DNA from: Bimastos eiseni
Lineage: Eukaryota > Annelida > Clitellata > Crassiclitellata > Lumbricidae
DNA length: 64,000 nt
Assembly (NCBI GenBank): GCA_959347315.1
Contig: OY365806.1
Coordinates: forward strand, 26,418,015 to 26,482,014
Reading direction: 5' to 3'
Below the pieces are notes generated by a model. That model had not been told where the DNA came from. It did no database searches and saw only the letters and a program-made list of their open reading frames with translations. Positions within the stretch are counted from its first letter, which is position 1, and the number at the start of each line of letters is the position of its first letter. Below are positions 10,745 to 49,125 of this stretch, one piece after another. A program made the translations under genes and the position numbers.

Positions 10745-11019
10745 TATAGTCCGAAGGTTCGATAGTCCAAAGATTGCATGGTATTCGATCGACAGGTGAT
10801 ATATTGCAGTTTTAATGGAAGTTAGTTGATGTAAAGAATCATGCTTGGCTGAAGCTGGATTGCACCATTTTCTTCATTCATCCAGCTTCCATTTAGGCAT
10901 GATTCTTTTCATATCAATCCAGTTCCCAGTTTTACACATTCTTTTCATCAATTAATCCAGCTTATATTTAAATTAATGTCGGAGTATAGAATCTTCGGAC
11001 TATCGAACCTTGGGACTAT
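10745..11019. mobile_element. Small fold-back element with GATAGTCC-type ends
   Basis: The left end has two tandem copies of a roughly 15-bp unit (ATAGTCCGAAGGTTCG then ATAGTCCAAAGATTG). The right end has the inverse, ending in TCGAACCTTGGGACTAT. The interior holds opposed copies of the shared minisatellite: AAAGAATCATGCTTGGC on the left and CATCCAGCTTCCATTTAG with ATTAATCCAGC on the right. It sits inside the 8244-11135 element. Confidence 0.75.
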
Positions 11020-11138
11020 TGAGCCTACACCGGGTGGGTGACGGTGAGTGGGTCTATGGAAACGTTACAATGCGTTACAGGGTGGTTGGGTGAAAAGCGG
11101 CCATTTTCAGCGTTACGTAATTATGCAATGACCCCTTA

Positions 11139-11584
11139 TCATTCTTCAGTAGATTCACTTGACTCTAAACATAAGGAATCTATAATAATGGTACTTCGCT
11201 CTAAACAACCATTTCATATCAAATATATTTATAAACCTACACTTTTTGAACAATAAAATTTTAGCATAAACAATGCCTTTCTAAAACAATTAGTTCCACC
11301 AAACTGAATTTAGTATTTACTAAGCCTACCGTTTCTCCACAGAGCAACGCATTTCATTCGTGGCACTGCACTTAAACACTTTCGATAAATTGCTTCCTTT
11401 GTAAAATATAACATAATCGAATTATTTTACAACTCTGCTACCAGGTCTAATCTCATAATAATCTTTCATATAGAATACATAAATGTGGAAAACAAATATC
11501 TAAAGAAAATAAAGCTATTTTCTCTTTTGATGTCCCAAATCAACGAAAGTGTTTTGTATCTTCAGAAGATCTTAATTCTCTCTG
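11139..11584. other. 3' flank of zinc-finger gene 1
   Basis: AT-rich sequence downstream of the minus-strand zinc-finger stop codon and up to the TTA boundary of the neighbouring transposon. It presumably contains the 3' UTR. No obvious polyadenylation signal was picked out. Confidence 0.4.
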
Positions 11585-13348
11585 TCACATTTCTCCGTTG
11601 TGTTTTCTTGCATGTTTCTTCATCTGGCTAGACTGTGCAAATGATTTACAACATACCTGGCATGTGTAAGGTTTTTCTCCAGTATGCATTCTTGTGTGAT
11701 ACTTAAGAGCAGTATATCCTGTGTATCGTTTATTACATAACAGGCAGAGGTAGGGTTTCTCTCCTGTATGTATTCTCATATGAGTCTTAAGAGCCGAGGA
11801 TTGTATGAATGTCTTTTCACATAATAGGCAAACATAAGGCCTTTCTCCATCGTGGATCCTCATGTGAGTCTTCAAGTCAGAGGATCGTGCAAATGCCCTC
11901 CCACACAACTGACACTGATGTGCTCTCTCTCCCGTATGAATTTTCTTATGGTTATTCAATGTTGAAGCATAGGCAAATGATTTCTCACATACCTGACATT
12001 TGTATGGCTTTTCATTTCGATGGGATCTCATGTGCTTGCTTAACGTTGAAGAATGTGTGAATGCTTTATCGCACACTTGGCATTCATATGGTCTCTCACC
12101 TGTATGGGATCTCAAGTGAGCCTTCAAACCAGAAGATCGAGTGAATGCCTTCTCACACAACTGGCAAGAATGTCTTCTTACTTTCATGTGAGTTTTCATG
12201 TGAGAATTCAAATCAAATCTTGTGAATCTTTCCAGACAGATCTCACACTGTAACTTATTTTCATCATCATGAGTCCTCTTGTGGTTCTTCAGATTCCTGA
12301 TACAAGAATATGAAAGTTGACAAATCTGGCAAGTGTATGGTTTTTCTCCAGTATGTATTCTTGTGTGAGCCTTTAGAGCATCAGAACGAACAAACGCTTT
12401 GTCACATAACATACACTTAAATGGTTTTTCTCCAGTATGACTTCTCATATGTACGTGCAAATGAGAAGACTGCACATACGATTTTCCACATAGTTTGCAA
12501 GAGTGCATTTTTTGGCGTCTTTCTCCTGTATGGAGCCGAATGTGATATTTTAGATTGAACAATGACAAGAATGATTTATCACAAATTTTGCATTTGAATG
12601 GTTTTTCTCTGTTGTGGATAAACAAGTGCTTTTTCAGAGTATTAGAACGGGCAAATGCCTTTGTGCACAACTGACACTGGTATGGTCTTTCGCCAGTATG
12701 GGTTCTCATGTGCAGCTCTAATTGAGAACGTTGCATAAATGATTTCTCACATATTTGACATGCATGCGATTTTACCTGTTTGTCTCCAGTATGAACTTTC
12801 AAGTGCTTCTTTAGGTTGGAAGTTAACAGGAATGACTTTTCACATCTATCACATTTGTTTGTTTTTTCTCCAGTATGAATTTTGATGTGCTCATTTAGAT
12901 GAGTATTGTCATAGAATGTTTTTTCGCATAAATGACACTGGCAATGTTTTTCTTTGCTGTGGATTTTCACGTGTGCTTTGAGACGAGATGAGTGTACAAA
13001 AGATTTATCACACAGTTCACATGTGTATGGTTTATCTCCAGTATGCAGTCTAATATGCATTTTTAGATTTGAAGCCTTCAGGAATGATTTTTCACATAAT
13101 TGACATTTATACAATTTTTCTCCAGCATGTGTTTTGAGGTGGGCATTCAGGCGGAAAACCCTAGGAAAAGATTTCTGACATAGCTGACACTGGTATGTTG
13201 TTTTTTCTGTATGAGGATTCCCATTGTTGTCCTGGATATTAATCTGAGCAGCTGATTCTTTGCAGAAAGTGCTTTCATTCGCCATTTCCTCTCCTTCTCT
13301 TTTGATATAGATTTCAGTACCACTTTCTAAGACTATACTTTCTGACAT
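11585..13348 (-). CDS. Poly-C2H2 zinc-finger protein, 587 aa (paralogue 1)
   Basis: A single uninterrupted exon encodes a 51-residue N-terminal region (MSESIVLESGTEIYIKRE) followed by 19 consecutive C2H2 fingers from about residue 52 to the end. Eighteen have the canonical CX2CX12HX3H pattern with TGEKP-type linkers. Finger 12 (about residues 366-391) is shortened by a residue between Cys2 and His1. Linkers after fingers 5 and 8 are longer. No KRAB, SCAN or BTB domain is present. Such arrays normally bind DNA in the nucleus as transcription regulators; the target is unknown. ATG is preceded by A at -4 and T at -3, a modest context. An acceptor-like TTTGTATTGTAG lies about 60 bases upstream, suggesting a non-coding first exon. 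The paralogue at 18470-20386 starts with the same residues. Confidence 0.93.
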   Translation of the reverse strand: MSESIVLESGTEIYIKREGEEMANESTFCKESAAQINIQDNNGNPHTEKTTYQCQLCQKSFPRVFRLNAHLKTHAGEKLYKCQLCEKSFLKASNLKMHIRLHTGDKPYTCELCDKSFVHSSRLKAHVKIHSKEKHCQCHLCEKTFYDNTHLNEHIKIHTGEKTNKCDRCEKSFLLTSNLKKHLKVHTGDKQVKSHACQICEKSFMQRSQLELHMRTHTGERPYQCQLCTKAFARSNTLKKHLFIHNREKPFKCKICDKSFLSLFNLKYHIRLHTGERRQKMHSCKLCGKSYVQSSHLHVHMRSHTGEKPFKCMLCDKAFVRSDALKAHTRIHTGEKPYTCQICQLSYSCIRNLKNHKRTHDDENKLQCEICLERFTRFDLNSHMKTHMKVRRHSCQLCEKAFTRSSGLKAHLRSHTGERPYECQVCDKAFTHSSTLSKHMRSHRNEKPYKCQVCEKSFAYASTLNNHKKIHTGERAHQCQLCGRAFARSSDLKTHMRIHDGERPYVCLLCEKTFIQSSALKTHMRIHTGEKPYLCLLCNKRYTGYTALKYHTRMHTGEKPYTCQVCCKSFAQSSQMKKHARKHNGEM

Positions 13349-14128
13349 AATGAAAACTATGCAGATTTTAGTCAGAATTTGGCCACAAACTGAACGAACC
13401 TACAATACAAAGTACTTTCTGATCAGCATAAATTATTTTTTTATGTATGAATTATAACAAAATGAATACAATTACGTCTTTAACATTTTAGATTAACTAT
13501 CATACAGTTGAAAAGACAAGACCAATTATTAATCTAATCAAGACCTAGGCTAGGCCTTTGACAAACTTTAGTTTAATCCACTGAGGTATTTGTGCAATAT
13601 CAATTTCCTAATTTCTATTGCGCTGCTCTAAAGCTAAGCACACGGAAACAGGTTATTCATGAGTGCTGAATAAGTCACTGCTATTAAAAACTATTATAAA
13701 CAGAAATATTAACAAGAACTGTCAAGGTTAATAGTCCAAAGACAGTATTAGGACTTGGTACTACTCTCTTGTAATACTCTGCACTTAGCAGAAAATTGAC
13801 ACTCAGTTCATCCCTAATTAAAGCATCGTGTACTTGGAAGTATTGCCAATAGCAGATGAAGATGCTTAGAGTAGAAACTAAAGCTCCAAACTATTAGCAT
13901 GCCTCAAACCTATATTTTCTTGTAGTCTTACTGATATCAACATAAACTGTTACTCTTGATGGCAACTAACTAAATATTTATGATGGTCATCCTTACCACA
14001 GCTCAATTGTTTTGCTAATCTTCCTATTATTATTACTATTATTAGTATTACTACTACCACAACTACTTCCAATACTACAACAACTATTAATCTTATTATT
14101 GCAACCATTCTGGGAAAATCTTTAGATG
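13349..14128 (-). other. Presumed 5' intron of zinc-finger gene 1
   Basis: There is no coding sequence. A stretch at about 13786-13817 (TTGACACTCAGTTCATCC) matches one at 21445-21475 (TAGACACTCGGTTCATCC) upstream of the second zinc-finger gene, supporting shared ancestry of the two introns. A short ATT/ACT-rich tract occurs at 14030-14105. Confidence 0.55.
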
Positions 14129-14785
14129 GTAAAAGTCTATTTTAGCATATTTTATTAACGCCATTATGCTTGTATTACAATTTAGCATATTTTATTATTT
14201 GACTTGAATAGATGTCGAACTGTAGCTTAAATTGAAAAGGGATCGATGAAAAAGAAGAATATGCAAGTAGAAAGTGGATTGATGAATGGAATTATGCTTA
14301 AATAAAAGCTGGATTGATGAAAATATCATGATTCAGCAGAAGCTGGTCTGATGCGAGAGTGTCTATACGACGGATGTAAACAAAGTTGTGGACGCAAACA
14401 CTTGACTGATGAAACGAAATATACTTAAATGGAAGTTGAATTGACGAAAAGACATATACCTAAATGGAAGCTGGATCGATGAAACGAAATATGCATGAAT
14501 TGAAGCAGGATCGATAAAAAAAACCTGTATCGATGATAATAATTATGCTCAAATGGCAACTGGATCGCTGAAAAGAATTTAAAAGTGTATTCTGAGTATT
14601 AAATTCAACAAAATGTTGATCAGAAATTCCACTAGCTTCATCGATTCAGTTTCTACTCACAAGATACATGATATAATGAAGGAAATAATTAGATATGCTA
14701 AAATACACATAATGAAGGAAATAATTAATCATGCTAAAATACACGGCAAGCACACGAGATAATAAAATACGCTTTTACACTTTAG
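14129..14785. mobile_element. Fold-back element with minisatellite arms (copy A)
   Basis: The left end GTAAAAGTCTATTTTAGCAT is the inverse of the right end (AATACGCTTTTAC). The left arm holds five or more head-to-tail copies of the minisatellite (AAGCTGGATTGATGAAAA type). The right side has the opposite orientation (CATCGATTCAGTTTCTACT). It is the same subfamily as 24850-25480: both have CTGTAGCTTAAAT at the start of the array and ATGAAGGAAATAATTA near the right end, and lie in equivalent introns of the two zinc-finger genes. Confidence 0.8.
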
Positions 14786-16418: not shown

Positions 16419-16893
16419 GACGCTTTGGGGCAGAACGTTTTGACGCAGATCTCTGATACAATAATGTTGCATAATATATAAATATATTATATGGCAATCT
16501 AACACTTTAGTGTCGTAAATTATTCTCCATGGCAACTCAAGTTAAGCCTGGGGAGCGTCGCTGCTATAGAAGAGGGATTGGTGAAGAGAATCATGTTTAA
16601 CTAGAACATGGATCAATAAAAAGGATACTGTTAAATTGGGAGTTAGATTGATGAAAAGAATAATACTTACATGGAAGTTGGATATATGAAAAATGATGTT
16701 TAAATGGAAGCAGGATTGATGAAAAGATTGTGACTAAAGGGGTTCCACGACCAGCAGAATTCTCGTATTCATCCTACTTCTATTTAAGTATGATTCTTTT
16801 CGTCATTCCAGTTCCAAGTTTAGCATAATTATTTTCATTGATCATGCTTCATATCATATTATATATTGTATCAGATATCTGCGCCAAAACGTC
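16419..16893. mobile_element. Fold-back element with TTTTGGCGCAG ends (copy 1)
   Basis: The left end has two tandem roughly 15-bp units (ACGCTTTGGGGCAGA, ACGTTTTGACGCAGA), then TCTCTGATACAATAAT. The right end is the inverse (ATTGTATCAGATATCTGCGC). Arms of opposed minisatellite lie between: AGATTGATGAAAAGAAT on the left and ATTTAAGTATGATTCTTTTC on the right. The roughly 95-bp terminal domain is nearly identical, inverted, to the right end of the element at 27692-28412, including TAATTTACGACACTAAAGTG. Confidence 0.82.
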
Positions 16894-17732
16894 CAGCTCC
16901 GTGTTTTTCATTAATTTTTTCACAAGTTCGTAAGGTTAGACACACGCTGGTGAAGTACATACTAGTGGAATAATCAGATAAGACCTTGAAACGCTTGTGT
17001 TGCATTGGCCTTGATAGGTTTAACATGACATGATAATTTATTGTAGCAGTGAATGTTGCACTAAGTTGCTGAGCACGAACATGACCAATGGAAAAGGAAG
17101 AAGTCAGCAGTAGTCATAATTCGATGGGCTACATTTACATAAATAATGACATAATCCAACTTGGTCGGAAACTACACTATTTAGGCAGTTCTTCACAACA
17201 GCACTGTTTTACTTTTAGTAAAAGGTAACGCAGTTCTTGGTCATTCCGGAAGTTTACTCGCTTGAGCACTTACATGTTTATGCACACAATAGGGCTGATG
17301 CAATTAAAATGAAGGATGCAAACTCGAAAGTCTCTTGAAGGCCTATATTAAAATGTTAGTCACTGGCACTATTTTACTCAAAACCAGCGGAGTCGAATCC
17401 AGGTTGCATAAATCAGGCCCTGCCTATAGTCTTTTTGTCCTCGAGACCAAGGTCTTGGTCTGGAGAGAACTAGAGTTCGTTTTTCAAAGAATGGGTCGAG
17501 ATGAAAGGCCTTGAGGTTTCAAGTCGTTGCATCGATCGAGACTGATACTCGGATGGCTGCATCACCAGTGCAGCACAGAGCTGTGAGTCTGTCAAACCCA
17601 GAGCAGACTCTGATTATTTCTAGTCTGTACTTGAAAGTCCGTCAATCATGACTTTTCCAGTAAATTTGCACTATATATTTGGAGCTGATCTTCTGTTTAG
17701 TGAATTTTATTACTTAAACTGTCAAGTACCAA

Positions 17733-18469: not shown

Positions 18470-20386
18470 TTATAACCTATCCAGCATATGCTTTCTTTCA
18501 TGTTTCCTGAGATGGCCTGCCCGCGTGAAAGCTTTATGACATACTTGGCAAATGTGTGGTTTCTCTCCAGTATGCAATCTAGTGTGATACTTCAGAGCAG
18601 TACATCCAGTGAAACTTTTGTCACACAACAGACATATGTACGGTCTTTGTCCTGTATGTATTGTCATGTGAGTCTTAAGAGTTGAAGCAAGCGCAAATGT
18701 TTTCTCACATAAGAGGCAGACATAAGGCTTTTCTCCGTTATGGGTTTTCATGTGAGTCTTCATATTCGACGAACGAGTAAATGTCTTCTCACATGACCGA
18801 CAATTATAAGTTCTCAATTTAGGAGTTTTCATGTTATCATTCAAAACAATAGATTGTGTAAATCGTTCCTTTTGTATTCCATATTGACATTGGTTTTCAT
18901 CCATGTGAGTTCTCATGTGCTTCTTTAGAGTATTAAAGTGTGCAAATGCTTTCACACACACCTGACACTGATATGGTTTGTCACCAGTATGAATTCTCAT
19001 GTGCTCATTTAGCTGAGAAACGTAGTTGAATGATTTCTCACATATTTGGCAGGCGTGTAGTTTTGGCAGCGTATCTCCAGTATGAATTCGCATATGCTTT
19101 CTAAGAGTAGAAACAGTTATAAATGATTTTTCACAGATTTTGCACATGAACGGTTTTTCTCCAGTATGAGTTCTCGTGTGTGTTTGCAATTGAGAGGAGT
19201 GCATGAACGACTTGTCACATATATTGCATGCATGTATCTTTTGCTTCTTTTCTCCAGTATGAATTTTCATATGTTGCCTCAAGTTAGAAATGGATAAAAA
19301 CGATTTTTCACATCTTTCACACATATGCGGTTTTTCCCCTGTATGGATTCTTAAGTGTTCATTCAGGTGACTTTTATTATAGAATGTCTTCTGACATTCC
19401 TGGCACATGTATGGCTTTTCGCCAGTGTGCATTCTCACATGAGTCTTTAGAGCATCAGAACGTGAAAATGCTTTCTCGCATAGCTTGCACTGATATGGTT
19501 TCTCTCCAGTATGGCTCCTCACATGCACAAGCAAATTAGAAGATTGCATAAATGATTTGCCACATAATTTGCAAGTGTGTAAGTTTGGCTGTCTCTCTAC
19601 AACACTTTCCAGATTTTCTCCATTGTGGGTACCAGCATGCTTCTTCAGAGTATTAGAGCGGGCAAATGCTTTTTCACACAGCTGACATTTGTATGGTCTT
19701 TCACCAGTATGACTTCTCATATGTGACCGTAAATGAGACGGCTGCACAAATGATTTTTCACATATTTGGCATGCATGTAGTTTTAACCGTTTAACTCCAG
19801 TATGAACTCTCGTATGTTTCTTGAGGTTAGAAGCCAACAGAAATGACTTTTCACATCCGTCACATTTGAATGGTTTTTCTCCAGTATGAACCCGTATGTG
19901 CTCAATCAAATGAGCATTGTCCCGAAATGTTTTCTCACAGATGTGACACTGGTAATTTTTTTCTTCTTTATGGATTTTCATGTGTACTTTCAGACGAGAA
20001 ATCTGGATGAATGATTTCTCACACAATTCACATGTGTATGGTTTATCTCCAGTATGCAACCTCGTGTGCACGGCTAGCCTTGTAGCCTTCAGGAATGATT
20101 TTCCACAAACGTTACATTTGTGTGGTTTTTCAACAGTATGCAATTTTATGTGGGCATTTAAAAGAAATATCATGGGAAATGTTTTCAGACATAGTTGACA
20201 CTGATATGTTGGTTCTTGTTGATGCAGATCACAACTGGTAGTAACTAGATGATTAAGCTGTGCAGCAAATTCGTTGCAGATAGTTCTTTCATTTGCTAGT
20301 TCCTTTTCTTCTCTCTTAACATGTATTTCATTGCAACTTTGAGCAGAAACAATTTCCGACATATTGATATTTAAGAAATTGTTCAC
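18470..20386 (-). CDS. Poly-C2H2 zinc-finger protein, 638 aa (paralogue 2)
   Basis: A single large exon encodes about 60 residues, then 20 finger units to the C-terminus. Nineteen are canonical C2H2. Unit 16 (about residues 500-525, genomic 18812-18890) has lost its second Cys and both zinc-binding His and is presumably dead. The N-terminus (MSEIVSAQSCNEIHVKREE) matches paralogue 1, so the second Met at 20362 is the likelier start than the first at 20386, as in the paralogue. Long linkers follow fingers 5, 7, 11 and 13. Fingers 1-7 and the last four align one-to-one with paralogue 1; the middle block differs in composition. No KRAB or SCAN domain is present. A nuclear DNA-binding role is inferred from the family. 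An acceptor-like TTGCATTTTAG lies about 60 bases upstream of the second Met. Confidence 0.93.
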   Translation of the reverse strand: MNNFLNINMSEIVSAQSCNEIHVKREEKELANERTICNEFAAQLNHLVTTSCDLHQQEPTYQCQLCLKTFPMIFLLNAHIKLHTVEKPHKCNVCGKSFLKATRLAVHTRLHTGDKPYTCELCEKSFIQISRLKVHMKIHKEEKNYQCHICEKTFRDNAHLIEHIRVHTGEKPFKCDGCEKSFLLASNLKKHTRVHTGVKRLKLHACQICEKSFVQPSHLRSHMRSHTGERPYKCQLCEKAFARSNTLKKHAGTHNGENLESVVERQPNLHTCKLCGKSFMQSSNLLVHVRSHTGEKPYQCKLCEKAFSRSDALKTHVRMHTGEKPYMCQECQKTFYNKSHLNEHLRIHTGEKPHMCERCEKSFLSISNLRQHMKIHTGEKKQKIHACNICDKSFMHSSQLQTHTRTHTGEKPFMCKICEKSFITVSTLRKHMRIHTGDTLPKLHACQICEKSFNYVSQLNEHMRIHTGDKPYQCQVCVKAFAHFNTLKKHMRTHMDENQCQYGIQKERFTQSIVLNDNMKTPKLRTYNCRSCEKTFTRSSNMKTHMKTHNGEKPYVCLLCEKTFALASTLKTHMTIHTGQRPYICLLCDKSFTGCTALKYHTRLHTGEKPHICQVCHKAFTRAGHLRKHERKHMLDRL

Positions 20387-22350
20387 AAAATAATAATTGG
20401 CAGGAGCAACTGGGTAAACCTAAAATGCAACACCACAGTTATTGTGTAAGGAAGCTTAGCACAGACCCATCACAATCATTCATCTCATGTACCTGGTATA
20501 CTTAAAACTAGAAACAAGTACAGCTTGAATTAGAGTAGCCAATTAGTTATTATCACAGAAAGCTAACCACGTGACCCGGTTGATAAATGATTTAAGTCTG
20601 GGATAATGATTGATTTAAAATATTGTAGCTGGCCAGAATTCATGTTTTAAATCATGTTTCAATGTTTTATAACAGAAAAATGGTCGAAAACAATAATCCA
20701 CAGAGCAAATTCGCTCAGATGAAAGATGGTACAAAAGAAAACATTCAATCTTAACAGAATTTCAGAATGTCAAACAACAGTACATGGCGCATACCATCCA
20801 CAAGCACATTATGAACCATTGAACTTTTGCAGAAACGATGAAGAAGCAAACGACACATACACATGTGCAATTTATTATGAAGATAGCGTACTACAGGTTA
20901 CTAATCAGGAGTGGGCACGACTGACTAGGACAGTTTTAAGGCGAGTACAAAAATAGCCAGAGTCGACACTGGTGAACAGTGCTGATAATAGACTGTTAAC
21001 TGCTATTATATTATGCAGTTAAGCTTATTCAATAAAGCAATGACAGGATAGCATCTGAAATGAAACAATTTTTGTACTATATTGTGTGACAGGTCACAAT
21101 TTTGGATAGGTATTAACCGAAACAGGGCTCGGCTGAGTTTCATAATACTCGTTATTACTCAAACAATGGGTACGAGTTACAATAAAATTGGCTATACAAT
21201 TTTATGTTTTGAAAACGAAAATTGGATTTTATTATTTATAAAACAACCGACCTAACTAAAAACACAAATACTGTTACTAGTAGAACTTACCAGATACTAC
21301 TTACTAGTATAAACAGAGGCAAACCCAAAAATTCATTAAAAAATTTCAAATTGCCAAACTAAAAATAAAGAGAATGAGGCTTTTCAAAAATTCAAAACTC
21401 GGCATTGGCACAACTCAACTGGTAAAACTCAGTACTAGAACTTGACAGGAAATAGACACTCGGTTCATCCTAGTTATGGACTGTTTACAATATAAAATTG
21501 TATTTTGTAGAAGACATGATACACAACCTTGTCTTTTCAAGTTCTTTGTAATTTAGTTTGTAGTTTCTAATAACATGAATCCTATAAAGTTGTTATCACA
21601 CGATGTGCAGAGATGGGCGCAATTAGCTCAATTGTTAACCAAAAATTTAATAATCGATCTGAAATAGAATACACATAATCTTGAAGCCAATTAATTAGAG
21701 TTGGAATTTACAGTAGCTATTCAATTTGCAATTAGAATTAGATTATCATAGTTGATAAAAATATTTCCTTCATGAATTTTTTCAACAAATTCAGAATAAT
21801 TGTTAACACCGATTTCATGCTCAGCTATTGTAAGAAGCATAAAATTAAGAACAGAAATAAGAACTTGTATTGGCTCTCTTGTTTTATAACCAAGAACAGA
21901 CAATTGATACAGTTCTGAAGCTCATTATTATAAACTCATTCTTAGTTGACTCGTTCATATAACATAATGAATAAATCTAATCGATCAGCTAATCGTTTTA
22001 AATTGGAAGTAGCTACTAATTGTTAATCGATCAGAATACAACAAATAAAGCAGAATTAGATGCTTGTCCAGTAAATTAGTCAACCTAACTGATTAGTTGC
22101 CAAGGTCACACACCCCAAAAAACAAACATATCAAGTTAATTCGAAAGGTCATGCAACAACAGCTTATTTAGCATATTGCACTTGCATAGTTATTCCCCAG
22201 ATGTAATCGAATCAGAGAGAACATTTTAAATCTTTGTATTGTATATCTTGCACTGCACCAACAAACGGAAATGTGGAACTCAGACAATCTAAACATTTTA
22301 TCATGACCTATTTTTATAGTCTCACAATGGAAACGATTCTGCTTGGTGTG
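20387..22350. other. Upstream intron region of zinc-finger gene 2; no coding support
   Basis: This contains the stretch at about 21445-21475 that matches the intron of paralogue 1. A 76-codon plus-strand ORF at 20726-20956 has no recognisable motif. The AT-rich stretch from about 21610 to 22110, opening with GAGATGGGCGCAATTAGC and rich in AATTAG and AATCGATC, looks like an old hAT-type interspersed repeat, but no partner end was confirmed. Confidence 0.4.
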
Positions 22351-24345: not shown

Positions 24346-24499
24346 CTGTAAAAAAGTCCGATCTAGACTAGGAGACTAGCAGAGAGGCCATCATGCCAAA
24401 TTGCATCTGAAGACCTTCAAGAAGAATGGACCGATTAAGACAGTCAAAGCAGAACTGAAATCCAGCAAAAGCAGAGCAGTGATCAAACGTGTGTGTAGA

Positions 24500-24749
24500 G
24501 AATCGTTGAAACCCGAATCCCTGAAACTGATACCCGTCATATCCCCGAAAACGAAGCTGGATTGATGAAAAGGATTCAGCATAAATGGAGGCTGGATCAA
24601 TTAAAATAATTCATGCAGAAGCCGGATTGATGAATGAATTGCGCTGTTTTGAGACAGTTCAGTGTTTTTCAATAGTACATTTGTTTTCTGAGAATCGGGC
24701 ATTTTGGTCTTTTTAGTGTTTTCGGGTTCCGATAATTCGGGTTGATCCC
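24500..24749. mobile_element. Small fold-back element with AACCCGAATCCC ends (copy 1)
   Basis: The left end has GAAACCCGAATCCCTGAAAC and the right end the inverse (TTCGGGTTCCGATAATTCGG). The interior has three minisatellite units (GAAGCTGGATTGATGAAAAG), then TTGCGCTGTTTTGAGACAGT. It is an inverted copy of 25635-25883, and the two flank the element at 24850-25480. Confidence 0.8.
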
Positions 24750-24849
24750 TATGAACCAGAATAAAGTGCTAAGATTATGCCGTCGTAAACTTTAACACAG
24801 CTGTTTCTTAGTCTTTCAGATTACAAACTCATTTAGTTAAAACTCTAGT

Positions 24850-25480
24850 TCAGCACATTTTATTCAACAATATTTTATCCAAAAAAATAGCATATTTAGT
24901 TATTTGGTATAAACTGTAGCTTAAATGGAGAAGAGGTCGATAAAAAAGAAGAAGGTGCAAGTAGAAACTGGATTGATGAAAGAAATCATGCTTAAATGGA
25001 AGCTGGATTGATGAAAATATCATGCTTGATTGATGCGAGAATGTCGCCATGATGAACGTGGAATTGATGTAAACAAAGTCGTGTAGGCGCGCAAAACCAG
25101 ATTGATGAAAAGAAATATACCTAAGTGGAAGCTGGATTGATGAAAAGAAATAAACTTAAATGGAGGCTGGATCAACAAAGAGAAACATGCATGAATTGAA
25201 GCTGAATCGATGAAGATGTCATGCATAATTAGAGTTCGATTGATGACAAAATGGCGTCGTGATGCAATCGCATGGAATTTCTGATCAACATTTTTGTTTA
25301 ATTAAATACTCTAAAACACACTTTGAAAATTCTTTTCATCGATCCATCTTCCATTTAAACATTATTATTATCATCAATCCAGTTTGTACTTACAATGATA
25401 CAATGAAGGAAATAATTAAATATACGCTGAAATGCACTGCAAGCACATGAGATAACAAAATATGCTAAAATACACTTTTA
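24850..25480. mobile_element. Fold-back element with minisatellite arms (copy B)
   Basis: The left arm contains repeated AAATGGAAGCTGGATTGATG units. The right arm is inverse (CATCGATCCATCTTCCATTT). The right end AATATGCTAAAATACACTTT is the inverse of the left end of the element at 14129-14785, identifying the same subfamily. Internal landmarks CTGTAGCTTAAATGG and ATGAAGGAAATAATTAAATA are shared with that element. Confidence 0.8.
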
Positions 25481-25634
25481 CCCAGGTTTACCCTCATTTA
25501 GTTAGTTAATATGAAATATTTCTAATAAAATTAAACCACTTCATACAAACAGCAAGAACAATTGTTCTCTTCTTGCGCCATGTGCACAAATCGACATAAA
25601 TAACTCAGCTACGTATGTATACGCATCCGTGGAA

Positions 25635-25883
25635 GGGGATTAACCCGAATCATCGAAACCCGAATCCCCGAAAACGCTGAAAAGGCCAAAAAACCGATTC
25701 CCCCAAAACAGCAATGTACTTTTGAAAACCACTGAACTGTCTAAAAACAGCGCAATTCTTTCATCAATCCAGCTTCTACTTGAATTCTTTTCATCCATCC
25801 AGTTTCAATTTAAGCAGAATCCTTTTCATCAATCCAGCTTCGTTTTCGGTGATACTGCGGGGAATTCGGGTTTCGGCGATTCG
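25635..25883. mobile_element. Small fold-back element with AACCCGAATCCC ends (copy 2, inverted)
   Basis: It is the reverse complement of the copy at 24500-24749 along its whole length: TTAACCCGAATCATCGAAAC at one end, TCAATCCAGCTTCGTTTTCG at the other, and TCTAAAAACAGCGCAATTC in the middle. Together the pair makes the 24.5-25.9 kb region a large imperfect palindrome. Confidence 0.82.
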
Positions 25884-26027
25884 CTACGCACCCCGTGGAA
25901 GACACATTTGGATTACTTACTTTCGTTTTAAAAATAGTCAAATTTTATTCAGTATTTATATGAACAAAGGTTAACCTTATATTACAATGCAATCGAAGTT
26001 GAAAATACGCTACGAAATAATGAGAAC

Positions 26028-27246: not shown

Positions 27247-27662
27247 GGTACGTAATTATCGGTTAATTCACCCGACTTAAATTTCCTATATTAGAATTAC
27301 ATATATGGAATTAAAAAAAATTTACGATGTCTCCAGCTTACATTTTTTTCAATCCAGCCTTGATTTAAGCATGATTCATTTCATCAACCCAGCTTCCATT
27401 TCCACGATTCTTTTCGTCACATACAGCTTCAATTTGCGTAGGAATCTATTCATCACCTCCAGCTTCCATTTGCATGCGATTCTTTTCATCACATCCAACT
27501 TCCATTTAGGTATATTTTTTCATCAATCCACCTTCCATTTATGTGCATATGTTTTCATTGATCCAGCTTCCATTTATGTGTATCTATTTTCATGAATGTA
27601 CGGAAGAGCGTCATGGCCGATAACTATAGGAAAATTAATTCGGTGAATTAATGGATAAGTAC
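27247..27662. mobile_element. Fold-back type element with GGTTAATTCACC ends
   Basis: The left end GGTACGTAATTATCGGTTAA, then TTCACC, is inverse to the right end (GGTGAATTAATGGATAAGTA). The interior is a one-directional array of about seven minisatellite units of the type TTCATCAATCCAGCTTCCAT. Unlike other copies, only one arm orientation is seen. Confidence 0.72.
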
Positions 27663-27691
27663 CCAAAGCACCCTATCGACCACCATCACAA

Positions 27692-28412
27692 TCGGAGCAG
27701 GACGTTTTGGCGCAGCCGTTTTGGCGCAGGGCGTTTGGGCGCAGATAGCTGATACAATATATAATGTAACACGAAGCATGATCGATGATAATAATTATGC
27801 TAAACTGGGAATTGGAATGATGAAAAGAGTCATGCTTAAATAGAAGAGGGATGGATATGAGAATTCTACTCGTCGTGCAACCCTTTTAGTCACAACGTTT
27901 TTATCAAGATCGCTTCCAATTAAACTGCATTATTTTCATCAGTCCAGCTTCAAATTAAGCACGATTATTTTCATCAATCCATCTTCCATTTAAGTATAAT
28001 TATTTTCATCAATCCGGCTTCCGCTTAAACGTGAAACATGATTATTTTCATCTATCCGGCTTCTTTTTAAGCATGATTATTTTCATCAACCCCGCTTCCA
28101 TTTAAGCCTGATTCTTTTAATCAATCCAGGTTCCATTTAAGCATGATTATTTTTATCAATTAAGCTTCCATTTAAGCACGAATCTTTTCGTCAATCCAGT
28201 TCCCAGCTTAACAGTATCCTTTTCATTGATCCGGCTTGTAGTTACAAATGATTATTTTCACTGATCCATCTTCTACAACCGACGCTCCCGAGGCTTCACC
28301 TGATTTGCCATGTGGAATAATTTACGACACTAAAGTGTAGATTGCCATGTAATATATTTATATAATATGTAATATACAATATTATTGTATCAGAGATCTG
28401 CGCCAAAACGTC
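27692..28412. mobile_element. Fold-back element with TTTTGGCGCAG ends (copy 2)
   Basis: The left end has three tandem roughly 15-bp units (ACGTTTTGGCGCAG, CCGTTTTGGCGCAG, GGCGTTTGGGCGCAG) followed by ATAGCTGATACAATATA. The right end has one inverse unit (ATCTGCGCCAAAACGT). The body is a long array of ATTATTTTCATCAATCCAGC units with about two opposed units on the left. The number of terminal units varies between ends and between copies, as in TU-type fold-back elements. Confidence 0.85.
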
Positions 28413-29297
28413 ACGTACCGCATAACAATTAAGTATCAGTTAAGTATTTTGTAACAGGAAGGTTGTAGTGGCCTCGAATGCGATTCTTTAAATATCTGGA
28501 AATGCAGAAAACCTGGCATCAGAAAGTTATACGAACCAACACTTGAGTGTGCTGTACATGTAGTTATGTACAATTCAATAAAAAAAACTTAGGTAGCCTG
28601 TTTATGTTAAAAAGTTAACTAAAAATCTTCAAAGGTGATAATTATGTTTTTTTAAGGTCTTGTTTTAATTGAAGTCAAAATTTATAAATTTATTGGAATT
28701 GTGATTTGTGACGTTCACATCATTCCTCACTCACTGAATTTGTTGAATAGCAAGAAACAGTCTATGGGAATTTCTTCTAGGCCATCTCGATCGTAATTTT
28801 GGTCCTATGCGCGACTGTGCATACATTAAAAAAGTCTAACACCTTACAACCAAAAAAACTTTCTTGAAAAACAACTTATGTTTGGCAAACCCTGCCTCCT
28901 ACTCACTGCCTATTGGTCATGTCTAGCTTTAATGCATACCTTTGCGCTAAGCTTCAGAAATAGGCCTATGGCACATGTGTTGCAACTGATCTAAACAAGT
29001 AAATCCAATATTTATGATAAGCAGAAGCCTCTGAATAGATACAGATTCATTTCAGTACTTGTTTATTCGTTTATATTCCCTTGATTTGATATAACAATTG
29101 ATCCGGTCCTATTTCTTTATCTATGTTTCGTTTTTTTTTAAATTTCAGTTCACTTAATATTTCTTTACTCATTATAAAATGTAAAAATCAGCAAATAAGA
29201 TTAATTAGTAATCTGTTGCCAAGGTCGGTAAAGTTGTACAAGTAGCCAATAAAATATGCAGATAGTGGAGAGTCATTAATCCACTACCAGACAATAC
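28413..29297. other. No gene seen
   Basis: AT-rich sequence with no supported exon. It may contain the 3' UTR of the minus-strand exon ending at 29298. Confidence 0.4.
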
Positions 29298-33332: not shown

Positions 33333-33377
<45 letters not shown>

Positions 33378-33380
33378 ATA
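33105..33380 (+). repeat. ATC/GTC trinucleotide microsatellite
   Basis: Some 275 bases of CATCATCATC with interspersed GTC and TTC units. The Ser-, His- and Ile-rich ORFs over it are frame shadows. It directly abuts the end of the minus-strand repeat-protein exon. Confidence 0.9.
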
Positions 33381-33398
33381 ATAACTGAACATAATCAC

Positions 33399-34638
33399 CA
33401 TCGAAAAGTTCTGTGTGTTCATTGATTCAAATGGGCTGCTGGATCCGAAAGGGCTGTTGGTTGCATAAGGGTCATTCGATTCGCGAAGGTTGTTGGATCC
33501 AAAAGATCTGACGGATCCAAAACGGCTTCTGCGTCTATAAGAATTTTTGGATGCAATAGAGGTGTTGGATGCACAAGGGTCCTTGGATTCACAAGTGTTG
33601 TTGGATACATACGGGTTGTTGGATCCAGAAGGGTTGTTGGATCCATACATGCCGTTGGATCCATAAGGGTTGTTGGATCCATATGGGTTGTTGGATCCAT
33701 ACGTGCCGTTGGATTCATAAGGTTTGTTGGATCCATATGGGTTATTGGATCCATACGTGCCGTTGGATTCATAAGGTTTGTTGGATCCATATGGGTTGTT
33801 GGATCCATACGTGCCGTTGGATTCATAAGGTTTGTTGGATCCATATGGGTTGTTGGATCCATACGTGCCGTTGGATCCGTAAGGGTTGTTGGATCCATAT
33901 GGGTTGATGGATCCATACGTGCCGTTGGATCCATAAGGGTTGTTGGATCCATATAGGTTGTTGGATCCATAAGGTTTGTTGGATCCATACGGGTTGTTGG
34001 ATCCATACGGGTTGATGGATCTAAAAGAGTTGCTGGATCCAAACGTTCTGTTAGATTCACTAGGGTTGTTGGCCGCACAAGGGTCTTTGGCTGCAAAAGG
34101 ATCGTCGTTGGTTGCACAAGGATCGTCGTTGGCTGCACAAGGATCGTCGCCGTTGGCTGCGCAAGGATTGTCGTTGGCTGCACGAGGGTCTTTGGCTGCA
34201 CAAAGATCGTTGTTGGCTGCACAAGGGTATTTGGCTGTACCAGGATCATCGTTGGCTGCACAATGGTCATTGGATGCACAAGGGTCCTTGGATTGAGAAT
34301 AACAAGGGTCTTTAGTTCCACTTGGGTCCTCTTGGCCACCAAAGTCGTAATTACCTTGAGAATCTTTCAACTTCCGTCTGTCCCACACGCCAAAGGCCTT
34401 GATGCCACTGGTCTTTAACATGAAGGTCTTGATGAGACTTCTGCACGAGAAACGTTGATTGACTTTGGTTTCAGTGCACCAGTCTTCAACTGCCGCCGAA
34501 GCACCTATGCAGCTAGCGTCCTTGGGAGCTGCGGCGGCCATTGGCATTTGTTGGCACGTGTCCACCTGCATGCATGCGTCTTGCGGCCTTCCTTTGGATT
34601 TCGATATTTTCTGTTCCGTTCTCGCCGCCCCATCATCT
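33399..34638 (-). CDS. Exon of a tandem-repeat protein rich in SNNPYG and AANDDPC units
   Basis: On the minus strand a good acceptor (ATCGCCTTTTTCAG) precedes an exon beginning A GAT GAT GGG. It opens DDGAARTEQKISKSKGRPQD, continues through a Cys-containing region (ACMQVDTCQQMP, AAVEDWC, RFSC) and a basic patch (VWDRRKLKDSQG). About 12 imperfect AANDDPC-like units follow, then about 25 GSNNPYG-type hexapeptides. A 398-residue ORF starts at Met 34571, but the upstream extension to the acceptor stays open, so this Met is likely internal. The frame runs to a stop at 33375 inside an ATC microsatellite. A candidate phase-0 donor (TCGATG|GTGATT) at 33399 would instead join it to the 29298-29603 exon. 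Function is unknown; a structural, secreted or adhesive protein is possible. Confidence 0.55.
33590..34050 (-). repeat. 18-bp coding minisatellite (GSNNPY unit)
   Basis: The 18-bp unit GGATCCATACGGGTTGTT (plus strand) is repeated about 25 times, with a higher-order 72-bp period in the middle (ATACGTGCCGTTGGATTCAT recurring). Each unit keeps a GGATCC core. The 18-bp period preserves the reading frame on both strands. Confidence 0.88.
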
Positions 34639-35649
34639 CTGAAAAAGGCGATAACATATGATGTACTTATGTACGCATCCGTTGTAAGAATGTTTGTTCA
34701 GTTGTTTCTCTGGATGTATATATGTATGTGTTGACGACTTCTGGTGTCTGTCGACTGAATTTAGAACCACTGATTTGCCCGATTTAGGTCTGTAGTATAG
34801 CGTTAATTGAAGAAAAGAAACATGTCTTTTCAGAGGCAGAGTCAGCCATTTTTGTAACCAGAGTATTGCACTGGTTACTCAAGGGCATTTTTCAACCAGA
34901 AAAATTCTGTTCTAGGCAAATTTATGGCGATCTCGTGGAAGGGCAACGACCAAGGCAGCAGTTTTTTAGCAGGGCATTTGGTCCTGGCTTGCCATGCTGT
35001 GGCGCCGCCAATGTTGTCTTTCATAATCACCCAATTAAATCGCAACAATACTTCAGAATTCGACATATATAAATCACACTGTACATACACGAATTTATCA
35101 TTGTCGTTTGTAGCGTAAAATTTCAACTTCGCACTTGATGTAGGCCTACTACTTGTATTAAATTGTACAAAATTAATAAGCCAATGACGATATGAAATCT
35201 TCCTACCTAAACATGGCGCCAAACAAGTTAATGACACGAAGACTCAAACATTGCGTCGTGGAGAATTCCTATAAAAATTGAACGAAAGCGTTGAACTTGA
35301 ACGTTCCCAAAAATTACCCGATTGAACGTAATATTATATTCATAACATTTATGTATTTTGCATGCATGTGTTTTTATAAAGTTATGAATGTAGAATTGTA
35401 GCTATGTATCTGTGTGTATCTAAATCTGTATCCATAAATCTCGCATCTTCCCGTATTTTGTCCTCTCCTCTATAATAGCCTACGATAGGCAGGTTCGTAC
35501 CTCCAATGTCGCCCTTCGTCTCCCCTTCAACTTGATGTAACCTTCCCTCATTATCCAGTCTATTAACATCACTTTCAGCCACCCTCTCTTGTGTTTTTCA
35601 CTTCATTCTTCCCTCAATAGTTCTTAGGAAGAGCGTCCCTCATTATGTA
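34639..35649. other. No supported gene
   Basis: A 120-codon minus-strand ORF (34875-35237) has no recognisable motif and no nearby splice or codon-bias support. Exons 5' of the repeat-protein gene may lie here but were not identified. Confidence 0.35.
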
Positions 35650-36200: not shown

Positions 36201-36429
36201 CTTTTTTTTAGTTCGTTCTTTTCCAACTACAACTATATTTAGGGTTGTTTTCTTTCCCGTGTTTATCCTCACGATCTTTGTTTTTTGATGTTTATTTTCA
36301 TATCGTACTACGTCGAGATCTTAGTTACCCAATCCGTCATTTTCTGTAGCTAACATGGTCTACGAGCAGCGTCATGGGTTGGCCTACGTTATTTTCGATT
36401 CTTCATGCTGGTATGCGCAAACGGTGACC

Positions 36430-36912
36430 GCTCATTTCGTCGAAGTTCATTTCGTCGCCTCTTTAGGGTAGCGCACATTATTAAAAACACTACCGAATGG
36501 TGACAGCCACGCACAGTGTACATATACCGAACCATCTAACAAAACACCTGGCTGCATTGATGAAAAGTATGCGGTTTAAATGGAAGAGGGGATGATGAAA
36601 AGATATTGACAGGAAGGTGGATTGACGAGAAGAATGCCGTTTAACTAGAAGCTGAATTAATGAAGAGGTTTCTGCCTGAATGAATGCAGAAATTATGGAA
36701 AGATACATGTCTAAATGGAAGCGGGAATTATGAAAAGATTTATGCCTTAATGGAATAGAAATGCTGAAGATATATCTGCCTAAATGGAAGCGGGAATGAT
36801 CAATAGATTTCTACTTAACTAGAATCTTGTGTCCAGGATCCTTATCATTATTTCTGCTTCCAGCTAGACATAATTCTTTTCATCAATCCAGCTTCTAGTT
36901 AATAATAAATGT
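36430..36912. mobile_element. Fold-back type element, probably right-truncated
   Basis: The left end has two tandem roughly 15-bp units (CTCATTTCGTCGAAG, TTCATTTCGTCGCC). A long array of minisatellite units (TAAATGGAAGCGGGAATTAT type) follows, then a short opposed segment (TCAATCCAGCTTCTAGTTAA). No matching right terminal repeat was found. Confidence 0.65.
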
Positions 36913-45800: not shown

Positions 45801-45894
45801 AGCTCGAGACAGTTGCAGCATGTCTTCAGTCGCACCTTTTTATATCGGTCACGGTTGGCGTTATCTCTTTATAAATAGCCATTAGCCACGTATA

Positions 45895-47280: not shown

Positions 47281-47425
47281 GAGATGGATGGATGGATGGA
47301 TGGATGGATGGACGGATGGACGGATGGACGGATGGACGGATGGACGGATGGACGGATGGACGGATGGACGGACGGACAGACAGACAGACGGATGGACGGA
47401 CAGACAGACAGACAGATAGATAACA
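47281..47425 (+). repeat. GGAT/GGAC/AGAC tetranucleotide array
   Basis: Runs of GATGGATGGATGGAC grade into GGACGGACAGACAGACAG. ORFs on either strand here are repeat artefacts. Confidence 0.9.
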
Positions 47426-47659
47426 ACTTCAGTGCAAAGAACTTCAGGCGCAACCACTTTGGATTCCGAAGGTGACGAGATGGCTCACTTGTGACATAGA
47501 TTAAAGGCTCCACTGTAGCCTCTTATAAATCTAATTTATTCATTCTTTATAGCGTCCTGCCTGCCATACAGCTATGTCGTGCATTGTAAACATTCTGGAA
47601 TGAATGCTGTCGGTAATAAAATAAGAAATATTTGATCTACTCTTGACAAAAGAACAATT

Positions 47660-47810
47660 CCAGAAGTTCTGGTCAGAAATGAATGAAACACTCGTATCGA
47701 ACCCGCGTCACTTTCCCTTTCAGACAGTGAGTGAGGTTCAGGCCACTCATGCAGTCGGGGTAATGGGGTCTTCCCGACTGGATCCGCTGCGATCAACAGT
47801 CATACGTGGC
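47660..47810 (-). mobile_element. Possible SINE head fragment
   Basis: On the minus strand a B-box-like GGGTTCGATACGAG follows GAGTGGCCTGAACCTC by about 40 bases. This resembles a tRNA-type Pol III promoter, but the A box is weak. Confidence 0.35.
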
Positions 47811-47978
47811 GAGTAAATTAGGCCTAAATGTTGTGTATATGGGGTCTCTTTTGGCCACGTTAGGTAGCACTGGACTACTCATATGAGTAAGCAATGCTAT
47901 ACTACCAACTGTGTCTCACCCTACTATAATCTAATAATATAATATAATGAATAAATGTATATATACATGTATATAGGG

Positions 47979-49125
47979 CAGCGATGCCCACCCAACCTGA
48001 GGCCCGCGGGTCAAAAGTGACCCGTGAGGCCTACAAAAGAGGCCCTCGACCTATCAAAGAAAAGGCCTATAAAAATACGTGCAAAAAATGAATATTTGAC
48101 AGAATAATTATTTTCTATTATAAATTTACATATTTTGTTTACGTTTATAAGTGTTGTTCAATTTTAACAATTATGTTTATTAAATGTTAGTACACTTCTA
48201 GTCTATGCCAGCCGCTGATACTTTTAAGTATTCTTGCTTGCGTAAGCTACGTCAGGTTCTTTGGTCTATGTCCAACACATGTATACATTTGATTCGCTAG
48301 ACAGCGATGTAAATCGTAAAACGAAAATATGATTAGCGGCTCAGCCTACTATAGATTCACTTTTAGTGTCTGTTTGGTTGCACATACACATGTGAACAGT
48401 CATTTTCTGCAATGAAATTGACTAAAAGTAAAAATCGTCCACGGCTGAATAATTCCAATTTGAATTGTCTAATGTCTAATGATTCTGGCTACAAATAATC
48501 TTCAACAGGACATTTAAAAACTTGCTAACAATATTCAGCAACACATATCGCATTACTGATTAGTAAAGTACCAAGTGATTAAACTTGAAATAAATATTAC
48601 TAATCTAAAATTATTAAACCGGAATTTATCCATGTGTAATTGTATTCTATTCTTTAAAAAAATCTGCTAAATTTTTTTTATAATTTGGTAGTCATGTATT
48701 TTAGGTTCCCAAATTATTTGAAGCAAATTTTCTCTTTAAGACAGCTTCTACTTACATATGATTCTTTCCATCAACCCGGCTTCTATTGAAGAATGATTCT
48801 TTTAATAAATTCCGCTTACATTTAAACATATATTTCTCATCAATCCAGTTTCTATTTCAGTATGATTTTTTCATAAATCCACATTCTACTTAAATATAAG
48901 TAAATTGTTTTCATTTATTCCGCTTCTACATCTATAAACCTTTTAGCCATTGAAACATTCCTGATGACAGCTAACATTGCACAGTAATCAAAATTCAGTA
49001 GAACAATACAAAATAATTTTGGCACCTAAAATACAGGATTGCCTAATTTTTTTAACCTTGTGGCCCATCATGTCTTCCAACTAAATAAAAAATGACCCTA
49101 AATCGAAAAAGGTTGGGAACCACTG
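47979..49125. mobile_element. hAT-type element with embedded minisatellite array
   Basis: The left end CAGCGATGCCCACCCAACCT, then GAGGCCCGCGGGTC, and the right end, inverted, CAGTGGTTCCCAACC, are typical hAT termini. No 8-bp duplication is evident. At 48740-48930 it carries five or six units of the CATCAATCCAGTTTCTATTT minisatellite that also builds the fold-back elements. No transposase coding is recognisable. Confidence 0.65.

What the first reader, a model, noticed from the sequence alone, without database searches (positions are those of the whole stretch)
10745..48930. One minisatellite core shared by fold-back elements with many unrelated terminal repeats
The same 33-35 bp unit (core ATCAATCCAGCTTCCATTTA and its inverse) builds arrays at 10745-11019, 14129-14785, 16419-16893, 24500-24749, 24850-25480, 25635-25883, 27247-27662, 27692-28412, 36430-36912, and inside a hAT-like element at 48740-48930. 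Most have opposed arms. Their outer ends fall into at least six unrelated sequence types (ATAGTCCGAAGG, TTTTGGCGCAG, AACCCGAATCCC, TTCGTCGAAG, GGTTAATTCACC, AGCATATTTTATTA). Sea urchin TU fold-back elements are known to have outer domains of about 15-bp tandem repeats and variable interiors, so these look like TU relatives. Termini appear to have been exchanged around a common core, or the core colonises different transposons.
Basis: partly seen in the sequence, partly recalled or inferred. Interest (0 to 1): 0.88.

Follow-up and report, generated by a model that had tools for sequence, protein, structure and literature searches.

The report
One repeat inside many earthworm transposons
In the genome of an earthworm (family Lumbricidae), small non-coding jumping elements with clearly different ends carry the same 35-letter repeat block inside, and some copies are mosaics showing that ends and interiors have been swapped between families.

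Summary
Observation confirmed. A 35-bp unit builds ten arrays (66 units) in the window; where both arms are seen, minus units lie left and plus units right. The genome holds 4708 near-exact 20-mers, the reversed control none. The arrays sit inside short transposons: nine of ten have both ends, and four of ten have target duplications of at least 7/8 or 8/9. The host is not a sea urchin: mitochondrial ND4 is 88% Aporrectodea, a lumbricid earthworm. I label 13 terminal classes, several from one locus. Class-consensus cores are nearly identical, while the window's seven end types do not align once the core is masked. Nearest-neighbour units share a class in 179 of 217 cases (83 expected), so arrays are inherited within families. 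Direct mosaics exist: n83 joins D interior to an n21-like terminus at a sharp breakpoint; L089 does so with G interior; L050 combines B and D interiors. A, D and G have 15-16-bp end arrays and 9-bp duplications; two FLYWCH-MULE transposons in this genome share that anatomy, with other 15-mers and no core. B duplications are 8 bp, transposase unknown. Best reading: modular fold-back MITEs, at least partly MULE-driven, whose minisatellite interior passed between families. hAT fails; TU is unsupported.

The parts
10728..11031 (.). Element A: 16-bp terminal arrays (ATAGTCCGAAGGTTCG), asymmetric GGT... ends, 3 plus core units by profile; target duplication GGGTGGG[C/T]G (8/9)
14128..14779 (.). Element B: ends GGTAAAAGTCTATTTTAGC / TGTAAAAGCGTATTTTA, 8 core units (-------+), duplication CTTTAGA[T/C] (7/8)
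16420..16900 (-). Element C: same family as G in reverse orientation; GACGTTTTGGCGCAG 15-bp end arrays, 8 core units (-----+++); no target duplication recognised
24489..24749 (-). Element D1: AAACCCGAATCCCCG 15-bp end units, 3 minus core units; same family as D3, opposite orientation; no clear duplication
24836..25492 (.). Element D2: B family, 8 core units (------++), target duplication CTCATTTA (8/8; the exact repeat runs to 12 bp)
25636..25892 (+). Element D3: ends GGGATTAACCCGAATC / GGTGCGTAGCGAATC, 3 plus core units, exact 9-bp duplication CCGTGGAAG
27247..27663 (.). Element F: ends GGTACGTAATTATCGGTTAATTCACC / GGTACTTATCCATTAATTCACC, 5 plus core units by profile; no duplication found
27694..28419 (+). 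Element G: ends GGAGCAGGAC.. / GGTACGTGAC.. plus GACGTTTTGGCGCAG arrays; 14 core units (---+++++++++++); its right end is an exact copy of a terminus with 444 matches (up to 2 mismatches) in the genome; no duplication recognised
36423..36905 (.). Element H: left end GGTGACCGCTCATTTCGTCGAAGTTCATTTCGTCG with 15-bp units, 8 core units (------++); right end not found, end coordinate is the end of the last unit
48687..49043 (.). Element I: ends GGTAGTCATGTATTTTAGG / GGCAATCCTGTATTTTAGG, 6 plus core units; not a hAT element by its own ends; no clear duplication
51372..51922 (.). Element X (comparison): fold-back with CCGGACAATTCGGCG 15-bp arrays and NO core; duplication TATAA[A/T]TG (7/8)
57278..57957 (.). 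Element Y (comparison): fold-back with CGTCAATTGATCCCC arrays and NO core, inserted in a reverse-transcriptase-like reading frame; duplication AATCTG[T/C]TG (8/9)

Best explanation
The arrays are the interiors of small non-autonomous fold-back transposons (MITEs) in a lumbricid earthworm. SHOWN: one homologous 35-bp unit lies inside elements of 13 terminal classes as I label them; elements are bounded by mostly class-matched ends, often starting GG, with 8-bp (B group) or 9-bp (A, D, G, n23) target duplications; two FLYWCH-MULE transposons in the same genome have the same end anatomy (short G/GG start, 15-bp arrays, duplication of at least 9 bp); several loci are mosaics joining one family's terminus to another's interior at sharp breakpoints. 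INFERRED: each class is moved in trans by the transposase that recognises its own ends (FLYWCH-MULE for the 15-bp-array ends, unknown for the GGTAA..TTTTAG ends). The opposed minisatellite arms are cargo acquired a few times, by template switching during gap repair or ectopic recombination between abundant, hairpin-forming copies. Each new end/interior combination then amplifies as a family, with little further exchange.
For: 66 of 67 profile units in the window lie inside the ten elements. 4708 genome matches, control 0. Core-masked BLAST between window elements gives no cross-class similarity beyond two marginal hits (B-I, X-Y; E 0.04-0.05) and hits caused by overlapping query windows, while unit consensuses of the eight classes with 7 or more units differ by 5% per site in the core. 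None of 47 elements has a plus unit left of a minus unit (listing). Of 20 loci fetched by the G terminus, not by the core, 18 carry core units (L061-L063 are near-identical). 56 of 63 adjacent end pairs around arrays match by class, 40 of them with the class defined elsewhere. Target duplications, up to 2 bases of play: D 4 of 7 at >=8/9 (null .08), A 4 of 4 (.05; the window copy was misplaced there and is 8/9), B 4 of 11 at >=7/8 (.31), n23 1 of 1; also L048 9/9 and L058, L060, L064. Mosaics: D against n83 consensus identity is 15-42% in windows outside and 79-100% inside the breakpoint, about 48 nt of it non-core, in 4 n83 loci and 9 D copies; L089 and L050. MULEs: L094 and L095.
Against: Nearest-neighbour units are in the same class in 179 of 217 cases, so exchange is not ongoing at high rate. 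No autonomous element with exactly the A, D, G or B ends was found: only 3 of 93 MULE loci were read, and none of the 100 listed (of 444) G termini lies within 12 kb of a MULE match, although a G-type array ends about 480 bp from the L094 element. X has 15-bp arrays but its best duplication is 8 bp (7/8), and 8 bp does not exclude a MULE, since Phantom elements are listed with 8-10 bp (PMC6446971 table passage); the two duplication lengths therefore do not prove two superfamilies. In one search only 1 of 17 G pairs gave a duplication; inner array repeats were often taken as the end. In the window C, D1, F, G and I lack a clear duplication, and H lacks a right end. Six of the seven mixed end pairs are weak or lie in nested clusters; only L050 was worked out in detail. 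How modules are transferred is inference.
Confidence: 0.7

Rival explanations
1. Vertical descent: all classes derive from one ancestral core-bearing fold-back whose short terminal repeats turned over fast (concerted evolution of 15-bp arrays), while the core stayed because it is functionally constrained.
For: Of the six outer unit types compared, five were taken as 15 bp and one (A) as 16 bp, and the set is weakly more alike than composition-shuffled sets: in inward orientation 1 of 200 shuffles reaches the sum and 1 of 200 the best pair (G and X, 11 of 15); with both strands allowed 5 and 10 of 200 (B and F were left out). Core positions vary less than spacer positions.10-.19 against .20-.40 differences per site from class consensus, and .843 against .759 major-base frequency in 60 units held in register. 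Units group by class.
Against: Window end types are unalignable after masking while unit consensuses differ by 5%; target-duplication length differs between B and D; X and Y have 15-bp arrays but no core; mosaics with sharp breakpoints exist.
Confidence: 0.16
2. The 35-bp unit is a protein-binding site (transposase or host factor) kept by selection in every family, so sharing reflects function more than history.
For: Constant outward polarity and near-identical class consensus; core positions vary less than the spacer, though part of this is an alignment effect. The Galileo paper reports secondary transposase-binding sites in internal tandem repeats (PMC3573991, passages).
Against: X, Y and both FLYWCH-MULE transposons lack the core. 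The core/spacer contrast shrinks when only units in exact register are used. No binding data exist here.
Confidence: 0.1
3. The unit is an ordinary satellite/minisatellite into which transposons inserted, or which spreads on its own.
For: Tandem 35-bp organisation; 2 of 40 and 7 of 20 core loci show no library end outside the core. L016 shows A and D inserted in core-like sequence.
Against: Arrays lie inside, not outside, matched ends, with duplications in part of the elements; in the loci read, arrays are short (up to 18 units in one element) and often form opposed arms.
Confidence: 0.04

Closest known systems
Tm1 (Mutator/Foldback family of root-knot nematodes, PMC3169594; abstract and passages seen)
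   Same: Composite ends: short asymmetric terminal motifs outside the inverted repeat, 13-15-bp tandem arrays, mostly 9-bp target duplications, MITE-like members, Phantom-type transposase, FLYWCH discussed
   Different: Tm1 is defined by one terminal sequence family; here many terminal families share a separate 35-bp minisatellite interior and show mosaics; host is an annelid; sequences were not compared
Galileo of Drosophila (PMC3573991; abstract and passages seen)
   Same: Long internally repetitive ends; chimeric copies, including the centre of one subfamily with the ends of another; exchange proposed by ectopic recombination or conversion
   Different: P superfamily with 7-bp duplications; the exchange is among subfamilies of one element
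Rehavkus and Phantom MULE groups (PMC6446971; passages and section 8 seen)
   Same: 9-bp (Rehavkus) or 8-10-bp (Phantom) duplications, long terminal repeats; Rehavkus is reported from insects and annelids with a minisatellite before the 3' terminal repeat; Phantom may carry FLYWCH
   Different: Rehavkus transposase has a PHD finger; the two array-bounded MULEs read here have FLYWCH and no 35-bp core
Tetris of Drosophila virilis (PMC4079207; abstract and passages seen)
   Same: Non-autonomous modular fold-back with internal tandem repeats in its ends
   Different: About 220-bp repeats, one element family
pearl-type MITEs and satellite-TE networks of bivalves (PMC5139131; abstract and passages seen)
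   Same: Short satellite-like arrays as modules inside mobile elements
   Different: The elements there are Helitrons or pearl-family MITEs; opposed arms with many terminal classes were not described in what I saw
TU elements of sea urchin (recalled; only the citation of the 1983 paper was seen)
   Same: Fold-back form, outer ~15-bp repeats and variable interiors, as recalled
   Different: Different phylum; here the interior is shared and the outer ends vary, the reverse of what is recalled for TU; no sequence comparison was possible

Membership tests
Fold-back (FB-like) elements | Inverted, internally repetitive arms able to pair | tested here: met
   Opposed unit arms in 5 of 10 window arrays; element G folds far better than shuffles (z -5.9, 20 shuffles; only G was folded). 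A, D1, D3, F and I show one arm only.
DNA-transposon MITE | Matched terminal inverted repeats, target duplication, no coding frame | tested here: met
   Ends in 9 of 10 window elements, duplications in 4 of 10; no frame of 110 aa or more inside the ten core elements. Not met for H (no right end); C, D1, F, G, I lack a clear duplication.
MULE (Mutator) for A, D, G ends | 9-bp target duplication | tested here: met
   D3 9/9, L048 9/9, L087 and L016 9/9 at one-base offset, A 4 of 4 at >=8/9, G L032 9/9 and L058, L060, L064 at >=8/9 next to the end. Not seen in most G pairs.
MULE (Mutator) for A, D, G ends | Transposase with MULE domain acting on these very ends | tested here: inconclusive
   Two of three MULE loci read have the same end anatomy but other 15-mers; 90 of 93 loci were not read
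MULE (Mutator) for B, n21, n83 ends | Target duplication of MULE length and a MULE transposase | tested here: inconclusive
   8-bp duplications: L019, L040, L014 8/8, D2 8/8, L022 and L083 7/8; unusual for MULEs but within the 8-10 bp listed for Phantom; no transposase found
TU elements | Sea urchin host and TU outer-domain sequence | not testable with these tools
   Host is a lumbricid earthworm; no TU sequence was available to compare
hAT (element I) | Paired hAT ends around the array with 8-bp duplication | tested here: not met
   Only one hAT-like end, outside the element's own 38-nt repeats; the hAT motif is recalled
Rehavkus | PHD-finger transposase and minisatellite before the 3' end | tested here: inconclusive
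   L094 and L095 carry FLYWCH and MULE domains and no 35-bp core, but they are not the proven partners; Rehavkus itself was not searched for
Satellite DNA | Long head-to-tail arrays without element ends | tested here: not met
   In the loci read, arrays of up to 18 units per element, mostly inside matched ends

The most novel reading that the evidence does not exclude
The 35-bp array is a transferable amplification module, in effect a parasite of transposons: whichever terminus captures it founds a high-copy family. It has crossed between two differently acting groups (9-bp FLYWCH-MULE-type ends and 8-bp GGTAA..TTTTAG ends), so transposon 'families' here are combinations of interchangeable end, interior and core modules.
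Probability: 0.25. Interest if true: 0.8.

Novelty: new variant of a known kind. Interest (0 to 1): 0.62.

Why it matters
If ends and interiors recombine often enough to found new high-copy families, then classifying MITEs by terminus or by interior gives different trees, and repeat libraries will merge or split families wrongly. This earthworm genome supplies thousands of core matches in elements with recognisable ends and target duplications, with which the old question of how MITEs and fold-back elements acquire their interiors can be tested quantitatively. It also ties 15-bp-array fold-back ends in an annelid to FLYWCH-MULE transposons of the same build.

Tried and rejected
Sea urchin origin: rejected by mitochondrial ND4; earlier attempts with a zinc-finger protein (hits across animals) and a lectin-like exon pair (named hits annelid and snails, 40-51%) were uninformative. 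hAT host of array I: rejected (see membership). Single long D1-D3 fold-back with D2 nested: rejected because D1 and D3 each have both ends. Exact core in bacterial genomes (two Bacteroidetes MAG contigs): a single 20-mer each in the same context, no array, judged coincidence. Viral contigs: 0 matches. First family graph by flank BLAST chained 57 nodes together through nested repeats and weak core copies and was dropped. L055 and L068 as autonomous copies: no long frame in 1.1 kb. A strong 'conserved binding site' reading: after restricting to units in exact 35-bp register the conservation contrast shrank. L050 was first read as an accidental join and then found to have its own similar ends; its duplication is unclear.

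Rows and limits: the G-class target-duplication script took inner array repeats as ends in most of 17 pairs, so its count is not a fair estimate; n83 and n21 rows there overlap (L042, L083 counted in both), and the window A start was misplaced. The scan of G loci slid the left 9-mer over about 970 positions, where about 0.1 chance hits per locus are expected; the three hits quoted lie within 2 bp of an end. L003-L010 duplicate L011-L018 and were left out of counts. Classes n15, n21, n23, n29, n30 and n47 were defined from loci in which they are also counted; F, H and I rest on one element each. B and F units were left out.
Full report
WHAT IS THERE. The window contains ten arrays of one 35-bp unit (consensus TGATTCTTTTCATCAATCCAGCTTCCATTTAAGCA). 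A profile built from it finds 67 units; simulated sequence gives 0.63 hits above 10 bits per run, the largest 20.1 bits. All but one lie in the ten arrays. Where both arms are seen, minus units lie left and plus units right (B, C, D2, G, H), and D1 (minus) and D3 (plus) keep the rule as reverse copies of one element. None of 47 elements listed has a plus unit left of a minus unit. Element G folds much better than shuffled sequence (z -5.9 on 20 shuffles); others were not folded.

ENDS. Comparing elements with and without the core masked shows three two-member families in the window (B with D2, C with G, D1 with D3) and four single types (A, F, H, I). After masking, no cross-class similarity remains except two marginal matches (B-I and X-Y, E 0.04-0.05) and matches caused by overlapping query windows. 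For several classes the ends start with GG and lie a few bases outside the 15-bp arrays: A GGTAGG../GGTGTAGG.., D GGGATTAACC../GGTGCGTAGC.., G GGAGCAGG../GGTACGTGAC... With ends so placed, window target duplications are A 8/9, D3 9/9, B 7/8 and D2 8/8, and for the core-less X 7/8 and Y 8/9; C, D1, F, G, H and I show none. X and Y are fold-backs of the same style without any core. Y interrupts a reverse-transcriptase-like frame (by eye).

HOST. The window is G000:C1:26418015-26482014 of a 660-Mb genome in 118 contigs. The last contig, C118 (15,339 bp), carries frames read as ND4L (by eye) and ND4. ND4 is 88% identical to Aporrectodea tuberculata and 85% to Eisenia fetida. The host is therefore a lumbricid earthworm (taxonomy), not a sea urchin.

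GENOME-WIDE TEST. The core 20-mer has 4708 places at up to one mismatch, reversed control 0. Of about 79 separate exact-match loci in the listed part (contig C1), I read 40 with 2.5-kb flanks and 20 with shorter flanks; 20 more loci were chosen by the G terminus. After discarding end hits that are really core sequence, 38 of 40 (not L011, L017) and 13 of 20 (not L073, L074, L077, L080, L082, L084, L085) show at least one library end. The end library was partly built from the same loci. Of 63 end pairs that directly bracket an array, 56 match by class (40 with the class defined elsewhere, 16 with library sequence from the same locus) and 7 are mixed: L050, and L014, L015, L016, L019, L046, L056, which involve weak hits or nested clusters. 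Of the 20 loci fetched by the G end, 18 carry core units; L061-L063 are near-identical copies.

DO CORES FOLLOW THE ENDS? On 285 units of 47 elements in 13 classes, mean identity is .709 within an element.711 between elements of one class and .700 between classes; the class effect is small (23 of 1000 label shuffles reach it). Yet the nearest neighbour of a unit outside its element is in the same class in 179 of 217 cases for the four large classes, against 83 expected. In the window alone the figures are .628.637 and .607 (8 of 500 shuffles). Units thus descend position by position within a family, while the founders of the families were almost the same unit: consensuses of the eight classes with at least 7 units differ by 5% per site in the 24-bp core and 28% in the spacer. 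Units differ from their class consensus at .10-.19 of core sites and .20-.40 of spacer sites. Part of that contrast is an alignment effect: in 60 units flanked on both sides in exact 35-bp register the major-base frequency is .843 against .759.

MOSAICS. Family n83 (L042, L076, L078, L083) begins GGTAATTTATGGTTTTAGCGTC, 85-88% like family n21 over 26 nt, but from AATGTACT inward it is D-family interior. In sliding windows D and n83 consensus identity is 15-42% outside and 79-100% inside; about 48 nt of the shared part are non-core. L089 has ends with GGTAAAATCTTATTTTAGC and G-family interior on its left side (44 nt, 75%, E 2e-5); its terminus also resembles B weakly (38 nt, 74%). L050 has its own similar ends, B-type interior on the left and D-type on the right. 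These junctions lie in non-repeated sequence next to the arrays, so terminus replacement, not only recombination within the repeat, has happened.

TARGET DUPLICATIONS AND TRANSPOSASES. With ends located by pattern and up to two bases of play, duplications of at least 8/9 occur in 4 of 7 D (null .08), 4 of 4 A (.05), 1 of 1 n23 and 1 of 17 G pairs; of at least 7/8 in 4 of 11 B (.31) and 3 of 5 n21/n83-type pairs (.05). The G figure is depressed by misplaced ends; a scan of the 20 G loci finds L058, L060 and L064 next to the end. B-type repeats are exactly 8 bp in L019 and L040, D-type exactly 9 bp in D3 and L048. X, with 15-bp arrays, fits 8 bp better than 9, and Phantom MULEs are listed with 8-10 bp, so duplication length alone does not separate superfamilies. 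The genome has 93 matches to the MULE transposase domain. Of three read, two (L094, 501-aa frame; L095, 479-aa frame) encode FLYWCH and MULE domains and are bounded by inverted arrays of 15-bp units (ATCAAAAGGGCGAAA; GGACGATTCATCCC), with exact duplications (ATTTATCCC, within an 11-bp exact repeat; GCTGGGGTC) and no core; the third (L093) shows no such arrays. The 15-bp-array classes therefore look like non-autonomous relatives of FLYWCH-MULE transposons. None of the 100 listed G ends lies within 12 kb of a MULE match, though a G-type array ends about 480 bp outside the L094 element. The transposase of the 8-bp group is unknown.

RELATION OF THE OUTER UNITS. Six outer unit types (A, G, D, H, X, Y) are weakly more alike than composition shuffles in inward orientation (1 of 200 for the sum and for the best pair; with both strands 5 and 10 of 200; G and X agree at 11 of 15), so some may share distant ancestry (B and F not included). 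That the B, n21, n83, L089, L050 and I ends share GGTA..TTTTAG is read by eye and was not tested.

READING. I conclude that these are modular fold-back MITEs. Steps shown: common core, class-specific ends, 8- and 9-bp duplications, mosaics, FLYWCH-MULE transposons of the same end build. Steps inferred: trans-mobilisation, and transfer by template switching or conversion. Known parallels are Tm1 for the ends, Galileo for chimeric exchange and Rehavkus for an annelid MULE-like element with a minisatellite (passages and one section seen). My ten searches of the held library (several lists were cut short, for example 15 of 90 and 10 of 81) listed no paper that by title and abstract start describes one minisatellite interior shared by many terminal classes in an annelid; most subscription papers and Repbase reports are not in that library.

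Noticed in passing
57032-58130: Element Y sits inside a reverse-transcriptase-like reading frame (by eye); the flanks read on across its target duplication AATCTG[T/C]TG.
   Followed up: partly
L016:2961-3546: An A and a D element stand back to back, each bounded by copies of the same target CTCCATTT[C/G], itself resembling part of the core unit.
   Followed up: partly
L094:1-170 and 640-2735: A G-type 15-bp array lies about 480 bp from a complete-looking FLYWCH-MULE transposon.
   Followed up: partly
L073:607-924: A core-bearing stretch bracketed by a 28-bp perfect inverted repeat that matches none of the classes.
   Followed up: no
11585-13399 and 18470-20419: Two long frames of C2H2 zinc-finger repeats on the minus strand, open over 604 and 649 residues (the second searched, the first judged by eye).
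   Followed up: partly
33375-34697: A 440-residue minus-strand frame with NPYGSN-type repeats, next to an ATC microsatellite; no Pfam hit.
   Followed up: no
L061, L062, L063: Three near-identical loci within 95 kb on C2 carrying a G end, three core units and a core-less X-type element: probably a recent segmental multiplication.
   Followed up: no
6983-7345: Minus-strand frame resembling the C-terminal part of hAT-type proteins (by eye; no Pfam hit).
   Followed up: no
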